From: Okeania sp. SIO1I7
Lineage (GTDB): Bacteria > Cyanobacteriota > Cyanobacteriia > Cyanobacteriales > Microcoleaceae
Length of the DNA stretch: 64,000 nucleotides
Assembly: GCA_010672585.1 (NCBI GenBank)
Contig: JAAHGF010000013.1
Location: 248,428-312,427 of the forward strand
Direction of reading: 5' to 3'
Shown in pieces: positions 8,837 through 52,900 of the stretch. The notes under the pieces were generated by a model, which did no database searches, had not been told where the DNA came from, and saw nothing but the letters and a program-made list of their open reading frames with translations. Each line of letters starts with the position of its first letter. The first letter of the stretch is position 1. Made by a program: the position numbers and the translations under genes.

Positions 8837-9135
<299 letters not shown>

Positions 9136-17436: not shown

Positions 17437-17674
17437 GGGTTTGCGCTTCACTAGTCTTTCTGTTAAGGTAGGGAGTAGGGAGTAGTTAAGAGTCAGGATA
17501 AATGGGAGTTATAGAGGAGGTAGAAGTAACAATTGTCTCTTAATTTTTCTGTCCTACGAAACTTTTTCTGCTAACTTTTTGCACCTTTTTGACCTAAAAG
17601 CTGGTACTTTTTCCAGACATAAAATTGCTAAAAGCAATATCAGTCAATGCTTTCATATTTATGAGCGCAAACCC
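17437..17674. mobile_element. TANTTA-duplicating miniature element, copy 2
   Basis: 238 bp, ends GGGTTTGCGCTTC and GAGCGCAAACCC, flanked by TAATTA at 17431-17436 and 17675-17680. Confidence 0.8.
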
Positions 17675-17684
17675 TAATTAATTA

Positions 17685-17926
17685 GGGCTTGCGCTCATAA
17701 AGCTAAAAGTATTTATATGTCAATACTTTAGCGTTTTTGCGGTCCAGAAAAGTGCACCTGTTTCAGTCTAAAACGCTCAAAAAGTTAGTATTTTAGGCGC
17801 ATAGTTGAACATAAAATCATTCTTACAATTCTTACTTCTACCTCCTCGCTCATTCCCATTTCTCCTGTCTCCAGTATAGCTGTCTCCTATTTACTACCTC
17901 TACTAAAATACTTTTTCAGCAAGCCC
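17685..17926. mobile_element. TANTTA-duplicating miniature element, copy 3
   Basis: 242 bp, ends GGGCTTGCGCTC and CAGCAAGCCC, flanked by TAATTA at 17679-17684 and 17927-17932. It overlaps flanks with copy 2, so it inserted next to, or into the duplicated target of, its neighbour. Confidence 0.8.
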
Positions 17927-20447: not shown

Positions 20448-20707
20448 GGACTTGCTGATTAAATCTAAAAGTATTTACAGATAAAGGTAAGTGCCTTTTT
20501 GGGGCCTTGAAAAAGTGCCTGATTTTCAGCTATTGATGCTCATGCATGTTAATATTTTAGGCTAATAGTTGGGCAGAAAAATCCCAAATTGACAATTGTT
20601 ACTTCTACCTCCTGGCTCCCGACCCATTTCTCCCCTCCACGGTCGGGGGAGGGGCTAGGGGCGGGTTGTCTCCTACCCTCACCCATAAGACTTTTGAGCA
20701 CAAACCC
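20448..20707. mobile_element. TANTTA-duplicating miniature element, copy 4
   Basis: 260 bp, ends GGACTTGCTGATT and GAGCACAAACCC, flanked by TAATTA at 20442-20447 and 20708-20713. It contains a copy of the GC-rich hairpin repeat at about 20633-20668. Confidence 0.8.
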
Positions 20708-20713
20708 TAATTA

Positions 20714-20928
20714 GGACTTGCTGATTAACTTTCAAAACATTGACAAATAAAGGCAAGTACTTTTTTAGATCGAAAAAAGTGGTCTAAAAAGCTCAAAAAT
20801 TTAGTATTTTGTGCATACAAGGGCAGAAAAGTCAAGGAATAATTCTTCCGACTACCTCCTCTGAATTAATTCCTATTTATCCTGAGTTCTGAGTTATAGC
20901 CTTACCAAAACTTTTTTTCAGCAAACAC
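20714..20928. mobile_element. TANTTA-duplicating miniature element, copy 5
   Basis: 215 bp, ends GGACTTGCTGATT and CAGCAAACAC. It shares the TAATTA at 20708-20713 with copy 4 and has TAATTA at 20929-20934. Confidence 0.75.
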
Positions 20929-22098: not shown

Positions 22099-22352
22099 GG
22101 GTTTGCGCTCAAAAGTCTTATGGGTGAGGGTAGGAGACAACCCACCCCTCGCCCCTCCCCCGACCGTGGAGGGGAGAAATGGGAATGAGCGATGAGGTAG
22201 GAGTAACAATTGTAAGAATGATTTTTCTGCCCAAATCTTGCCAAAATACTAAATTTTTGAGTGTGAAGAGCTGAAACAGGCGCACTGCAATTCGACCCTA
22301 AAAAGGCTAAAACCTTTATCTGTAAATGCTTTGATATTTAATCAGCAAGCCC
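22099..22352. mobile_element. TANTTA-duplicating miniature element, copy 6
   Basis: 254 bp, ends GGGTTTGCGCTC and CAGCAAGCCC. The flanks are TAGTTA on both sides (22093-22098, 22353-22358), so the variable base differs from the usual A yet is still duplicated. Confidence 0.85.
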
Positions 22353-25911: not shown

Positions 25912-26285
25912 AATTAATATTGATAAATGTTTGCTACAAATAGCTAGGATATTTATTAGGAGTCAGGAGTCAGTCCTCAGGAGTCAGGAGGAGAAAGATA
26001 AGACAAGATGAGCTTAGTTATGGCAATTGGAGAATTTTTTTTATGTCCAATTGAACGGATTTGATATTATCAGTACAGCAACAATTTAACTTCTGACTTC
26101 AGCTTAAGACATTCTCAAGGTCTCAAATTTAGTCACAGCAGTAATTTAACTTCTGACTTCTGAATTTATTTGTCATATAGAACCCCCGATCGTATCTTCA
26201 TAAATATTAATTTAGCTAGGAAACAGGAGACAGGAGACAGGAGACAGGAGTTCATTAATTGATAATTGATAATGGATAATTGATA

Positions 26286-31345: not shown

Positions 31346-31607
31346 GGACTTGCGCTCATAAATATAAAAGTATTGACTGATATTGGTTTGAGCAATTTTA
31401 GGTCCCGAAATTGTACCAGCTTTTCGGTTGATGGAGAGGAAAAAGTAAGAATGCGTGGGGTAATGATGAGAGAAAAACTAAGGGGCAATGATGAATGACT
31501 ACCTCTTCTACAACTCCCCTAAATCCGCTCCTCTTCACTACTCCCTACTCCCTACTCCCTACTCCCTACTCCCTACCTCAACAAAAAGACTAGTGAAGCG
31601 CAAACCC
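31346..31607. mobile_element. TANTTA-duplicating miniature element, copy 7
   Basis: 262 bp, ends GGACTTGCGCTC and GAAGCGCAAACCC. The left flank is TAATTA (31340-31345); the right flank reads TAATAATTA, so the duplication is imperfect. Confidence 0.7.
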
Positions 31608-32745: not shown

Positions 32746-33150
32746 TCAACAATTAATAATTAGGGTTTGCGCTTCATTAGCTAGTGAGCCAACTCCCCGT
32801 AGAAAAAAACTACCTAACCTCTCTTCAAAACCAGGAGCAGCTATATCAATTCCTCCTCCTTTTGTTGAATAAAAACCTACTACAGGATCTGAATTACCAA
32901 CCGCTTCCAACCTGGGGAAAAGTCCGGCATCGGGTAAACCATCCAGGTTACGGTCGATGCCAAAAGTTACACCCAAGGATGAAAACTGATCTGTAATTGG
33001 CATATTATCTACAGCTACACTGCCATCAGGAAATTTACCATCTACAGGTTCAAAGTTAATCAGAGATGTTGCATTAACTGAATGATTGGGCAATACACAC
33101 GCAGAGGTGGCTACCACAATACCCATCAATATTTGTTTGATTGCACCCAT
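32746..33150 (-). pseudogene. Exported protein truncated by a miniature-element fragment
   Basis: 134 codons. A signal peptide is clear (about 1-27, LMGIVVATSACVLPNHSVNA). The mature part resembles the start of cyanobacterial secreted beta-sandwich proteins, often PEP-CTERM (INFEPVDGKFPDGSVAVDNMPITDQFSSLGVTFG, then FFLRGVGSL). The frame then runs into the end of a TANTTA element (GGGTTTGCGCTTC at 32763) and stops with a C-terminus encoded by repeat DNA. The usual further 100 or more residues and sorting signal are missing. I regard it as broken, though a short secreted product is possible. Confidence 0.6.
32763..32782. mobile_element. TANTTA-type element, left-end fragment
   Basis: GGGTTTGCGCTTCATTAG preceded by TAATTA (32757-32762). 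Only this end is present; it terminates the exported-protein frame. Confidence 0.6.
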
Positions 33151-34249
33151 AATTATTCGGTCAAAAATACAAAGTTAATTTTCCCTATGATATGTTCTGT
33201 TTGTCAAAGGTTTTGACTTTTATGCACTAATACCAGAATCAATATTTGAAAAGTTTTAATTATCAATACCAGTTTCTAATTTTAAAATTTTCAACTTTGT
33301 CATCAATCCCTGACAAAAAGCAGTAAAAAAAATTCCAACCACTCAACATAATTTCAATACTTTCAGCCTTTTTTCTCGATCTGTGTGATATGATAAATTA
33401 AATATAATCCATAGGTATTTACTGCCTAATACAAATTTAAAGCTGCAAATACTGATTATTTCGTTGTTTAAAGCAGCGATCGCCTCATATACCTCCAAGC
33501 ATAATGAACTAATTTTCCTCAGTTGGTCTAAGCATGAGTTGACTTATTAACAATCATATAGTACAGTAGGCAAAAAAAATTAATTAGGGCTAGCCGATTA
33601 ATTATCAAAGTATTGACAGATAAAGGTTTTAGAGTTTTAGAGTTGAAAAAAGTACCAGCTTTGGAATGGAAAAAGCTAGAAAAGCTAGTATTTTGGGATG
33701 ATTATGGCAGAAAAATTGAGAGACAATTCTGACTCCTACCTCCTCGCTCATTCCCCATTCTCCCCTCCTGGGAGGGGGAGGGGCGAGGGGTGGGTTGTCT
33801 ACTGTCTCCTGTCTCTTGTCTCCTACAAAGAGCAAAAAGACTTTCCATACGCAAACCCTAATTAACCTATTAACTATTGCGCTTTGATTCCCTCAAAAAT
33901 ACAAAAAGGTTAGCGCCAGCTTATCCGTTAGGATAAACCCAACAGTAGTAAGGCGCGTGTTGGGTTTCCCTTCGGGAAGCTCCGCTAACACTACCGTTCA
34001 ACCCAACCTACATTTTTAGGCGTGTCAGTCCACTACTCAGTCTTTTGACTTTTAACTTCTAACTTTTGAGTTCTAATTCAATGGTGCATTACAACGGATT
34101 GCTAAATACCTTGGCCGTTCGCCCCCTACTCCCCTACTCCTCTACTCCCCTACTTCCCGACTCCCGACTCCCCTACTCCTCTACTCCCCTACTTCCCGAC
34201 TCCCGACTCCCCTACTTCCCGACTCCCGACTCCCCGACTCCCCGACTCC
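33151..34249. other. Gap with a TANTTA element and microsatellite
   Basis: No gene. A TANTTA element at 33587-33858, a hairpin around 33918-33990 (GGGTTTCCCTTCGGGAAGC), then a long CTCCCGACTCCCGACTCCCC microsatellite (about 34120-34250) that runs up to the stop codon of the solute-binding protein. Confidence 0.65.
33587..33858. mobile_element. TANTTA-duplicating miniature element, copy 8
   Basis: 272 bp, ends GGGCTAGCCGATTAATT and CGCAAACCC, flanked by TAATTA at 33581-33586 and 33859-33864. It includes the GC-rich hairpin repeat at about 33765-33799. Confidence 0.8.
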
Positions 34250-37686: not shown

Positions 37687-37950
37687 TTGCTCTGCTGATT
37701 AAATCTAAAAGTATTGACAGATAAAGACTTTAGCCTTTTTGGAGTCGAAAAAAGTACCTGGTTTTCAGCTCTTCATGCTCAAAAAAGAGCGTATTTTAGG
37801 CGCATAGTTGAGCAGAAAAATCAAGGGACAAAACGCCCGCTCCTACCTCTTCGCTCCCGATCCTTTTCTCCTGTCTTCCCCTCCTGGGAGGGGGAGGGAC
37901 GAGGGGTGGGTTGTCTCCTACCCCTACTAAAAGACTTTTTCAGCAAACTC
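37687..37950. mobile_element. TANTTA-duplicating miniature element, copy 9
   Basis: 264 bp, left end degraded (TTGCTCTGCTGATT), right end CAGCAAACTC, flanked by TAATTA at 37681-37686 and 37951-37956. It contains the GC-rich hairpin repeat at about 37876-37914. Confidence 0.75.
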
Positions 37951-51480: not shown

Positions 51481-51531
51481 GAAAAACAAGCATATAAAAT
51501 TCCTAGAGCTTCACAGGATGAAAATTTCAAC

Positions 51532-52900
51532 AAATATCTACTTACCTCTAGGTAGACCAAACATCTGGTGAAATTATCTGATAAATTGGCGACTATCTAT
51601 ATTTGGAAGTGAAATTTTCATCTGCTCCGAAAACTGGTAAAAAGTCGAAGGGAGATAAGAGGCGATCGCTCCACTTTAACAAATATCTACTTGACTCTAG
51701 CTAAAGCAGATATTCTGGAAAAGTCTCTGAGAAATTTTCGACTATCTATAGAAAGAAGTGAAATTTTTATCTCCTCAAAAAACTGGTAAAAAGTCGAGGG
51801 TAGACAAGAGGCTATCGCTCAACTTCAGAAAATATCTACTTCCCTATAGAAACAGCAAATGTTCTGGAGAAGTCTCTGAGAAATTTTCGACTATCTATAG
51901 AAAGAAGTGAAATTTTTATCTCCTCAAAAAACTGGTAAAAAGTCGGTGGTAAGCAAGAGGCGATCGCTCAACTTCAGACAATATCTACTTACTTCTAGAA
52001 AGAGCAAATATTTTGCGAAAAGTTTCTGGCAAATTTTCGGCTACCTGTATATAGAAGTGAAATTTTTATCTCTGAGAAAACTGGCAAAAAGTCGAAGATA
52101 GACAAGAAGTGATCGCTCAATTTCAGAAAATATCTACTTATCTCTAGGTAAAGCAAAAATGCAGATATCTGAGAAAAATCTCTGACAAGTTCTCGACTAC
52201 CTATATATGAAAGTTAAATTTTCATCTCTGAGCAGAACTGGTAAAAAGTCGAGGGGAGGCAAGAGGCAGTTGCTCCACTTTAGAAAATATCTACTTACTT
52301 CTAGATAGACCAGATATTTAAGAAAAGTCTCTGACAAATTTTCGACTATCTATATATAGAAGTTAAATTTTCACCTGTGAGGAAAACTAGCAAAAATTTG
52401 ATGGGAAGCAAGAGATAGTTGCTCCACTTCAGAAAATATCTACTTAGGGTTTGCTGAAAAAGTCTTATGGGTGAGGGTAGGAGACAGGAGACAGGAGAAA
52501 TGGGAATGAGCGAGGAAGTAGTCGGAAAAATTGTCAGAGCGATTTTTCTGCCATAATCATCCCAAAATACTAGCTTTTTGGGCTTTTTGAGCTGAAAACA
52601 GGCGCACTTTTTTAGACCAAAAAACGCACTTACCAATATCAGTCAATGCTTTGATATTTAATCAGCAAGCCCTACTTACTTCTAGATAGACCAGATATTT
52701 GAGAAAAGTCTCTGACAAATTTTCGATTATCTATATAAGAGTGAAATTTTCATCTCTGAGAAAAGTCTCTGACAAATTTTCGACTATCTATATATAGAAG
52801 TGAAATTTTCTACCTGTTCCAAAAACTGGCAAAAAGTTGAGGGAAGCCAAGAGGTAGTTGCTGCACTTCAGAAAATATCTACTTACCTGTAGGCAGAAAT
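51532..52900. repeat. 149-bp-period tandem array
   Basis: The phrase AAATATCTACTT recurs with starts at about 51532, 51681, 51830, 51979, 52128, 52285 and 52434, spacing 149 bases apart from one 157. Each unit also has AAATTTTCGACTATCTATA, GAAGTGAAATTTTCATCT and ACTGGTAAAAAGTCGA. The array resumes after the miniature element and fades out before 52930. 149 is not a multiple of three and no frame stays open, so it is noncoding. Confidence 0.85.
52447..52672. mobile_element. TANTTA-duplicating miniature element, copy 10, inside tandem array
   Basis: 226 bp, ends GGGTTTGCTG and CAGCAAGCCC. Flanks are TACTTA on both sides (52441-52446, 52673-52678). The neighbouring array unit at 52285 has the uninterrupted target ATCTACTTACTTCTAGATAG, which equals this site with the element and one TACTTA removed. 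Confidence 0.9.

What the first reader, a model, noticed from the sequence alone, without database searches (positions are those of the whole stretch)
52441..52678. Filled and empty target sites reveal a miniature element with 6-bp TANTTA duplication
Inside a 149-bp tandem array, one unit is interrupted by a 226-bp element flanked by TACTTA on both sides. The adjacent unit at 52285 has the uninterrupted text ATCTACTTACTTCTAGATAG. Removing the element plus one TACTTA restores it exactly. The other copies have TAATTA (8831, 17431, 17679, 20442, 20708, 33581, 37681) or TAGTTA (22093) duplicated, so the middle base is a true duplicate and not part of the element. Ends are GGGYTTGCK and its complement. 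No transposase is in the window.
Basis: seen in the sequence. Interest (0 to 1): 0.78.

Follow-up and report, generated by a model that had tools for sequence, protein, structure and literature searches.

The report
Stranded miniature transposons in a cyanobacterium
The finding is a real small jumping-DNA element that copies six letters of its landing site; it descends from a known kind of bacterial transposon of which no intact copy turned up in this genus, so it is a well-documented but fairly ordinary case.

Summary
Window 52447-52672 is a 226-bp non-autonomous element (MITE), flanked by TACTTA on both sides, inside a 149-bp tandem array. Ten copies lie in the window and several hundred in the 9.48-Mb genome: 741 exact TANNTAGGGYTTGC sites against 2 for the reversed control.

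In 119 end pairs from five genomes of the genus, left and right flanks agree at six positions (106-111 of 119) and fall to 19-27 of 119 outside. Deviant targets (GAATTA, CAATTA, TAATTG) are duplicated too. Matches lacking the element at six sites show one hexamer, or near it. So the duplication is 6 bp.

The parent is an IS5-family insertion sequence (NCBIfam NF033578; ISMae6/ISAcma17-like), about 1.67 kb, with the same ends. In other cyanobacteria 51 of 72 copies with assigned ends have identical hexamers. In this genus only broken copies were found: 0 of 5 genomes exceed the family cut-off. The MITEs look stranded, though insertion differences between species show fairly recent movement.

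Verdict: a new member of a known kind. The mildly unusual point is the 6-bp TANNTA duplication.

The parts
52447..52672 (-). MITE copy named in the finding, 226 bp, inside the 149-bp array; strand given relative to the parent IS
   Evidence: profile E=5.3e-61
52441..52446 (.). left 6-bp target duplication TACTTA
52673..52678 (.). right 6-bp target duplication TACTTA
51526..52446 (.). 149-bp tandem array that supplies paralogous empty units; similar units resume after the element, to about 52895
   Evidence: for the array; (by eye) for the continuation
8837..9135 (-). MITE copy, TAATTA both sides, carries an AGGAGAC heptamer array
17437..17674 (-). MITE copy, TAATTA both sides
17685..17926 (+). 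MITE copy, TAATTA both sides; its left hexamer overlaps the right hexamer of the previous copy by 2 bp
20448..20707 (+). MITE copy, TAATTA both sides; absent at the orthologous site of genome G042, inserted into the TAATTA of the next copy
20714..20928 (+). MITE copy, TAATTA both sides; shares one TAATTA with the copy before it; present in G042
22099..22352 (-). MITE copy, TAGTTA both sides
31346..31607 (+).
33587..33858 (+). MITE copy, TAATTA both sides
37687..37950 (+). MITE copy, TAATTA both sides, left terminus decayed

Best explanation
The element is a non-autonomous derivative (MITE) of an IS5-family insertion sequence of the ISMae6-like kind. Shown: short terminal inverted repeats (5' GGGCTTGCTGATT, 3' GGGTTTGC followed by a weaker TGAA), a length of 215-299 bp in the window, and a 6-bp duplication of a TANNTA target; elements with the same ends and a transposase gene exist, and in this genus those found are broken. 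Inferred: the DDE transposase of the parent bound the MITE ends in trans and joined them to a target with a 6-bp staggered cut spanning two TA steps two bases apart; gap repair made the duplication. The MITEs multiplied to several hundred copies per genome and are now stranded, or driven by a source not in the assemblies.
For: 1) Register test on 119 end pairs: flanks agree at six positions. 2) Deviant targets duplicated on both sides, two at the first and two at the last base relative to the parent's orientation. 3) Single-hexamer empty sites. 4) Two transposase-bearing elements in the same genome are framed by the same ends and hexamers: C1, 949 bp, TACTTA; C88, 1938 bp, TAATTA, with NF033578 matches. 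5) Relatives with an open 497-aa transposase frame: NF033578 at 467-485 bits against a cut-off of 275, Pfam DUF772 + DDE_Tnp_1_2, 3 of 3 tested; 51 of 72 copies with assigned ends have identical hexamers. 6) MITE matches to four fossil IS copies fall almost only in the terminal 100-bp bins.
Against: No intact transposase of this family was found in any of five genomes of the genus, so the driver is inferred from fossils and from other genera; the best fossil (G041 C24, 262 bits) has 12 stops. MITE interiors match the fossils little beyond the ends, so the middle has another or an unknown origin. 24 of 119 MITE pairs and 21 of 72 IS copies do not have identical hexamers. In the IS copies the two middle bases agree less often (57 and 58 of 72) than the TA steps (63-68 of 72); I ascribe this to exchange between copies, untested. 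Only 17% of the genome was read base by base.
Confidence: 0.92

Rival explanations
1. The ends are really TAGGG...CCCTA and only the middle two bases (NN of TANNTA) are duplicated; the outer TA steps are just target preference.
For: For a canonical TANNTA site the filled and empty sequences are identical under both readings. In the IS copies the TA steps agree more often than the middle bases.
Against: Deviant sites are duplicated in full: GAATTA and CAATTA (first base) and TAATTG twice (last base), orientation normalised; TATTTG in an IS copy of Microcoleus vaginatus (L056). A sister genome has a single CAATTA at one of these sites, though the flanks are only 81% identical. In the MITEs all six positions agree at 106-111 of 119, without a step between inner and outer bases.
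Confidence: 0.03
2. A different, living transposase family in this genome moves the MITEs, and the likeness to the IS5 fossils is incidental.
For: At least one insertion postdates the split from a close relative (window 20448-20707 against G042), yet no NF033578 match over the cut-off is present in 5 of 5 genomes.
Against: Among the 20 large end-pairs examined, out of 28 listed, the only long frames beside the IS5 fossils are an Apea-like HEPN protein, a TnpB and a cyclophilin (frames under 120 aa were read by eye only). All loci fetched from other genera were fetched by likeness to the IS5_1 transposase, so other families with these ends in other genera were not searched for.
Confidence: 0.06
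3. The hexamer repeats are a chance result of AT-rich flanks and the elements spread by recombination, not transposition.
For: TAATTA is common in AT-rich DNA (the window is 36% GC), and some neighbouring copies share or overlap hexamers.
Against: Positions just outside the hexamer agree only 19-27 of 119 times; empty sites are precise; reversed control pattern 2 against 741.
Confidence: 0.01

Closest known systems
ISMae6 (IS5 family, Microcystis) and ISAcma17 (Acaryochloris)
   Same: Same transposase family, GGGYTTGCT ends, 6-bp TANNTA-type duplication in the one copy of each examined (TAATTA, TAGTTA)
   Different: Those are full-length, 1682 and 1697 bp, with an annotated transposase gene; the window elements are 215-299 bp without such a gene
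Nezha MITE of cyanobacteria (Zhou et al. 2008, seen only in the reference list of PMC10969869)
   Same: A MITE described as active in cyanobacteria (title only)
   Different: Sequence and parent were not compared here
187-nt Microcystis MITE (PMC11448079, passages)
   Same: MITE in a cyanobacterium, matched to its parent by shared ends and duplication length
   Different: Its authors assign it to ISL3-family transposases with 8-nt duplications
Minisatellite-bearing MITE of Porphyromonas gingivalis (PMC4596501, search listing and start of abstract)
   Same: A MITE that contains a tandem minisatellite
   Different: Different organism; sequence not compared

Membership tests
MITE (bacterial miniature inverted-repeat element) | short, below about 500 bp, without a transposase gene | tested here: met
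   172-505 bp, median 264, in 119 end pairs, the search itself being limited to under 520 bp; no copy in the window overlaps a frame of 150 aa or more
MITE (bacterial miniature inverted-repeat element) | terminal inverted repeats shared with an autonomous element | tested here: met
MITE (bacterial miniature inverted-repeat element) | target site duplication with empty sites | tested here: met
MITE (bacterial miniature inverted-repeat element) | moved in trans by the parent's transposase | not testable with these tools
   needs an experiment
IS5 family (parent element) | transposase over the curated family cut-off | tested here: met
   3 relatives with open frames score 467-485 bits against 275, NF033578; the fossils of this genus stay under the cut-off
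IS5 family (parent element) | duplication length of a recognised IS5 subgroup (recalled: IS5 4, IS427 2-4, IS1031 3, ISL2 3, IS903 9, ISH1 8 bp) | tested here: not met
   6 bp TANNTA, occasionally 7 bp TANNNTA; the subgroup values are recalled and come from no call, and newer subgroups may exist, so this does not remove it from the family
ISMae6 group | same transposase lineage, ends and target | tested here: met
   one ISMae6 copy examined, 70% identical to the Microcoleus transposase used as query

The most novel reading that the evidence does not exclude
The NF033578/ISMae6-like elements form an IS5-family lineage that recognises two TA steps and cuts with a 6-bp (sometimes 7-bp) stagger, TA-N2/3-TA. 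The rule holds from cyanobacteria to Bacteroidota and probably Bacillota, outside the recalled IS5 subgroups. In this genus the lineage has lost every working transposase while its MITEs persist in hundreds of copies.
Probability: 0.35. Interest if true: 0.45.

Novelty: new member of a known kind. Interest (0 to 1): 0.33.

Why it matters
It gives a clean, testable link between a large cyanobacterial MITE family and its parent insertion sequence, with target duplications shown by filled and empty sites rather than assumed. It also marks a genus in which the MITEs appear to have outlived the transposase, and it suggests a distinctive target rule for one branch of the IS5 family.

Tried and rejected
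Rejected: a 2-bp duplication with TAGGG ends, and a one-sided 4-bp duplication. Rejected as parents: large end-pairs that turned out to be neighbouring MITEs or MITE pieces around other genes. An open 550-aa frame in G041 (C146) that matched NF033578 weakly is an IS1182-family transposase (NF033551, 333.5 bits against 270). The 1096-bp pair at window 32763-33858 is a lone end plus the 33587 MITE.

Led nowhere: ISLrh2-type copies gave no convincing ends (L157, L273, L274); no solved structure matches the transposase sequence (best E 0.15). Paper searches. Searches (IS5 family, 6 bp, cyanobacteria; MITE, Trichodesmium) returned no paper; (ISMae6) returned two, with one mention each, and the passages of one were seen around that mention (a table row), while one search showed other passages; PMC12730594 (passages) names IS5 subgroups in a figure legend without their duplication lengths. 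The library holds only open-licence papers, and ISfinder could not be consulted, so I cannot say that the 6-bp duplication is unpublished.

Full report
Observation. The window holds a 226-bp element at 52447-52672, flanked by TACTTA on both sides, inside a 149-bp tandem array that ends at the base before it. Removing the element and one TACTTA gives the text of the adjacent unit. A profile built from the family finds 10 copies in the window, one of them (8837-9135) split into two hits, plus one weak partial hit at about 25930-26071 (E=0.00025). Eight of the 10 have identical hexamers and recognisable termini at both ends, 31346-31607 has TAATTA/TAATAA, and 37687-37950 has TAATTA on both sides but a decayed left end. 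None of the 10 overlaps any of the 24 frames of at least 150 aa.

Scale. The window lies in a 9.48-Mb genome in 109 contigs. It has 366+375 exact TANNTAGGGYTTGC sites against 2+0 for the reversed pattern; the four sister genomes have 481, 677, 849 and 1902. In that search 60 of 61 genomes of the taxonomic family have at least one site, mostly a few to some tens; higher numbers also occur in G004 (159), G032 (116) and several genomes of genus g11 (up to 486). In 1.654 Mb of the own genome the profile finds 106 clusters, 1.6% of the bases, which extrapolates crudely to about 600 copies.

The duplication is 6 bp. From 1.654 Mb of own and 0.639 Mb of sister sequence I collected 119 end pairs under 520 bp whose interior matches window copies by BLAST, without any condition on the flanks: 75 from the own genome, 35 from G043, 6 from G042, 2 from G041, 1 from G040. 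95 of 119 have identical hexamers: TAATTA 66, TAAATA 5, TATTTA 4, TAACTA 4, TAAGTA 4, TACTTA 3, TATCTA 2, TAGTTA 2, TAATTG 2, and one each of TAGATA, GAATTA, CAATTA. Left and right agree at 106-111 of 119 in the six positions and at 19-27 of 119 at the three positions tested on either side. The 24 non-identical pairs, listed, include point changes, different TANNTA hexamers on the two sides and what look like wrongly paired ends. With orientation set by the interior (118 of 119 could be oriented), two copies deviate at the first base (GAATTA, CAATTA) and two at the last (TAATTG), each time on both sides. A reading with TAGGG ends and a 2-bp or one-sided 4-bp duplication would not predict that.

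Empty sites. All 119 copies were tested against the stretches held of the other genomes; seven gave a match spanning the joined flanks. Most of the rest had no orthologous sequence among those stretches, which I did not count. Two of the seven (G041 and G042) are the same site, so there are six sites. They are: TATTTA in the window at about 42960, where G042 and G041 carry a MITE (G040 reads TCTTTA there, one change); TAATTA in G041 and G042 where G040 is filled; TAATTA in G042 where the window has 20448-20707, flanks 98.3% identical; CAATTA in G043 where the own genome has L222 4385-4681 (flanks 81% identical, so it may be a paralogue); TAATTA in G041 where the window has 31346-31607; and, for 52447-52672, units of the array in all four sister genomes, which are paralogous units and of which some read TACTTT, TACTTC or otherwise. 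In the 20448 case the new copy entered the TAATTA that belonged to its neighbour.

The parent. Two elements of the own genome with the same ends and hexamers carry broken transposase genes: 949 bp on contig C1 (L018 15451-16399, TACTTA) and 1938 bp on C88 (L022 610-2547, TAATTA). Their pieces match NF033578, an IS5-family transposase. In the taxonomic family, 36 of 61 genomes, the own one included, have a relative. Of the 29 loci fetched there (L024-L052), 14 have an end pair 1.65-1.69 kb apart with GGGYTTGC termini and identical TANNTA hexamers; two of these 14 (L040, L051) are fossils of this genus. Three proteins with open frames score 467-485 bits against a cut-off of 275 and contain DUF772 and DDE_Tnp_1_2. 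The one scan of named genomes was capped and kept the best 80 of 490 relatives, several of them copies of one genome. Both ends were assigned in 72 of 80, and 51 of 72 have identical hexamers, among them one deviant, TATTTG. Of the other 21, two have 7-bp duplications (TAGAGTA, TATGGTA), 11 have different TANNTA hexamers on the two sides, as exchange between copies would give, four have poorly matching termini and are probably wrong assignments (L061, L088, L091, L103), and four remain (L086, L087, L114, L117). The register test gives 57-68 of 72 inside the hexamer, lowest at the two middle bases, and 9-24 of 72 outside. Copies annotated ISMae6 and ISAcma17 have TAATTA and TAGTTA.

More distant relatives. 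Persicobacter (38% identity) has TATTTA, TATATA and TAAGTA in three of five copies examined; one has TATTTA with either TAAATA or, at a further end, TATTTA, and one lacks the right end. Alicyclobacillus acidoterrestris has TAACATA, 7 bp, but the A. fastidiosus copy has no identical hexamers. Enterococcus and Tetragenococcus have TTATTTAA and Ruminococcus TAATTA, with ends that cannot be fixed from one copy; ISLrh2-type copies gave no clear ends.

Relation of MITE and parent. The MITE 5' consensus is GGGCTTGCTGATTAAAT..AAAG.ATT.ACAGATAAAGG; the 3' consensus is GGGTTTGC followed by a weaker TGAA. In BLAST of 99 MITEs against four fossils (L018, L022, L040, L051), hits fall in the terminal 100-bp bins except 8 of 116 for L022 and 6 of 105 for L040; the longest matches from the 5' end reach position 54-66 (116 in one copy) against L018, L022 and L051, and 88-99 against L040. 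So MITE and fossils share ends, and little of the middle matches.

Stranded. With the whole NF033578 profile, 0 of 5 genomes of the genus have a match over the cut-off; the strongest (G041, 262 bits) has 12 stops, and the others carry stops or are short pieces, apart from an IS1182-family transposase in G041 that matches weakly. Of the 28 large end-pairs listed, 20 were examined; seven of the other eight overlap these and one (L184 18271-18808) was not looked at. Besides IS5 fossils and MITE pieces they hold an Apea-like HEPN frame, a TnpB and a cyclophilin. Yet insertions differ between close relatives, and the two most alike copies of different places are 98.3% identical over their whole length, while the median best neighbour is 83%. 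So movement was fairly recent on the scale of species, and the source is lost or not in the assemblies; drafts in 109 to about 790 contigs could hide it.

Organism. Coordinates of several copies indicate that G039 of the same family is Microcoleus vaginatus HSN003, which NCBI places in Microcoleaceae, Oscillatoriales. The host is therefore inferred to be a large-genome cyanobacterium near that family; the species was not identified.

Judgement. The finding is right and the mechanism ordinary: an IS5-family MITE. The duplication length is the point a specialist might pause at, since the IS5 subgroup values that I recall (2, 3, 4, 8 and 9 bp) do not include 6; I could not consult ISfinder, so I do not claim that it is unknown.

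Noticed in passing
window 8869-8904 and 31538-31576; 99 MITE copies of under 360 bp: Many MITEs carry heptamer minisatellites: 42 of 99 copies have at least two tandem heptamers of the TCCTGTC type, and two heptamer arrays of the window (AGGAGAC, CTACTCC) lie inside MITEs.
   Followed up: partly
MITE interiors, e.g. window 20448-20707 and 22099-22352: 40 of 99 copies hold a CCCCTCC...GGGG block that looks like a separate palindromic repeat within the MITE.
   Followed up: no
window 51526-52446 and about 52679-52895; G040 C334, G041 C90, G043 C42 and C686: The 149-bp tandem unit next to the uvrA gene (Pfam UvrA domains) is a dispersed satellite: besides the syntenic arrays, similar units occur on other contigs of three sister genomes.
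   Followed up: no
L169 9925-11746: A TnpB gene (NF040570, 159 bits against 100) lies between two MITE pieces of opposite orientation, with matching outer ends and TAATTA on both sides, 1822 bp in all; whether it is one unit is unresolved.
   Followed up: partly
L201 3496-5098: Two MITEs flank a cyclophilin gene (PF00160) in a 1603-bp stretch with TAATTA on both sides; it could be chance or a composite unit.
   Followed up: partly
L013 4723-6631: An Apea-like HEPN frame (PF18739) lies between two matching ends with TAATTA on both sides, 1909 bp apart; only one end belongs to a recognisable MITE.
   Followed up: partly
window 17936 and 32763: Lone MITE-like ends with no partner end found nearby.
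   Followed up: partly
L089, L130, L158: 7-bp duplications of the form TANNNTA in relatives, suggesting that the spacing of the two TA steps sets the stagger.
   Followed up: partly
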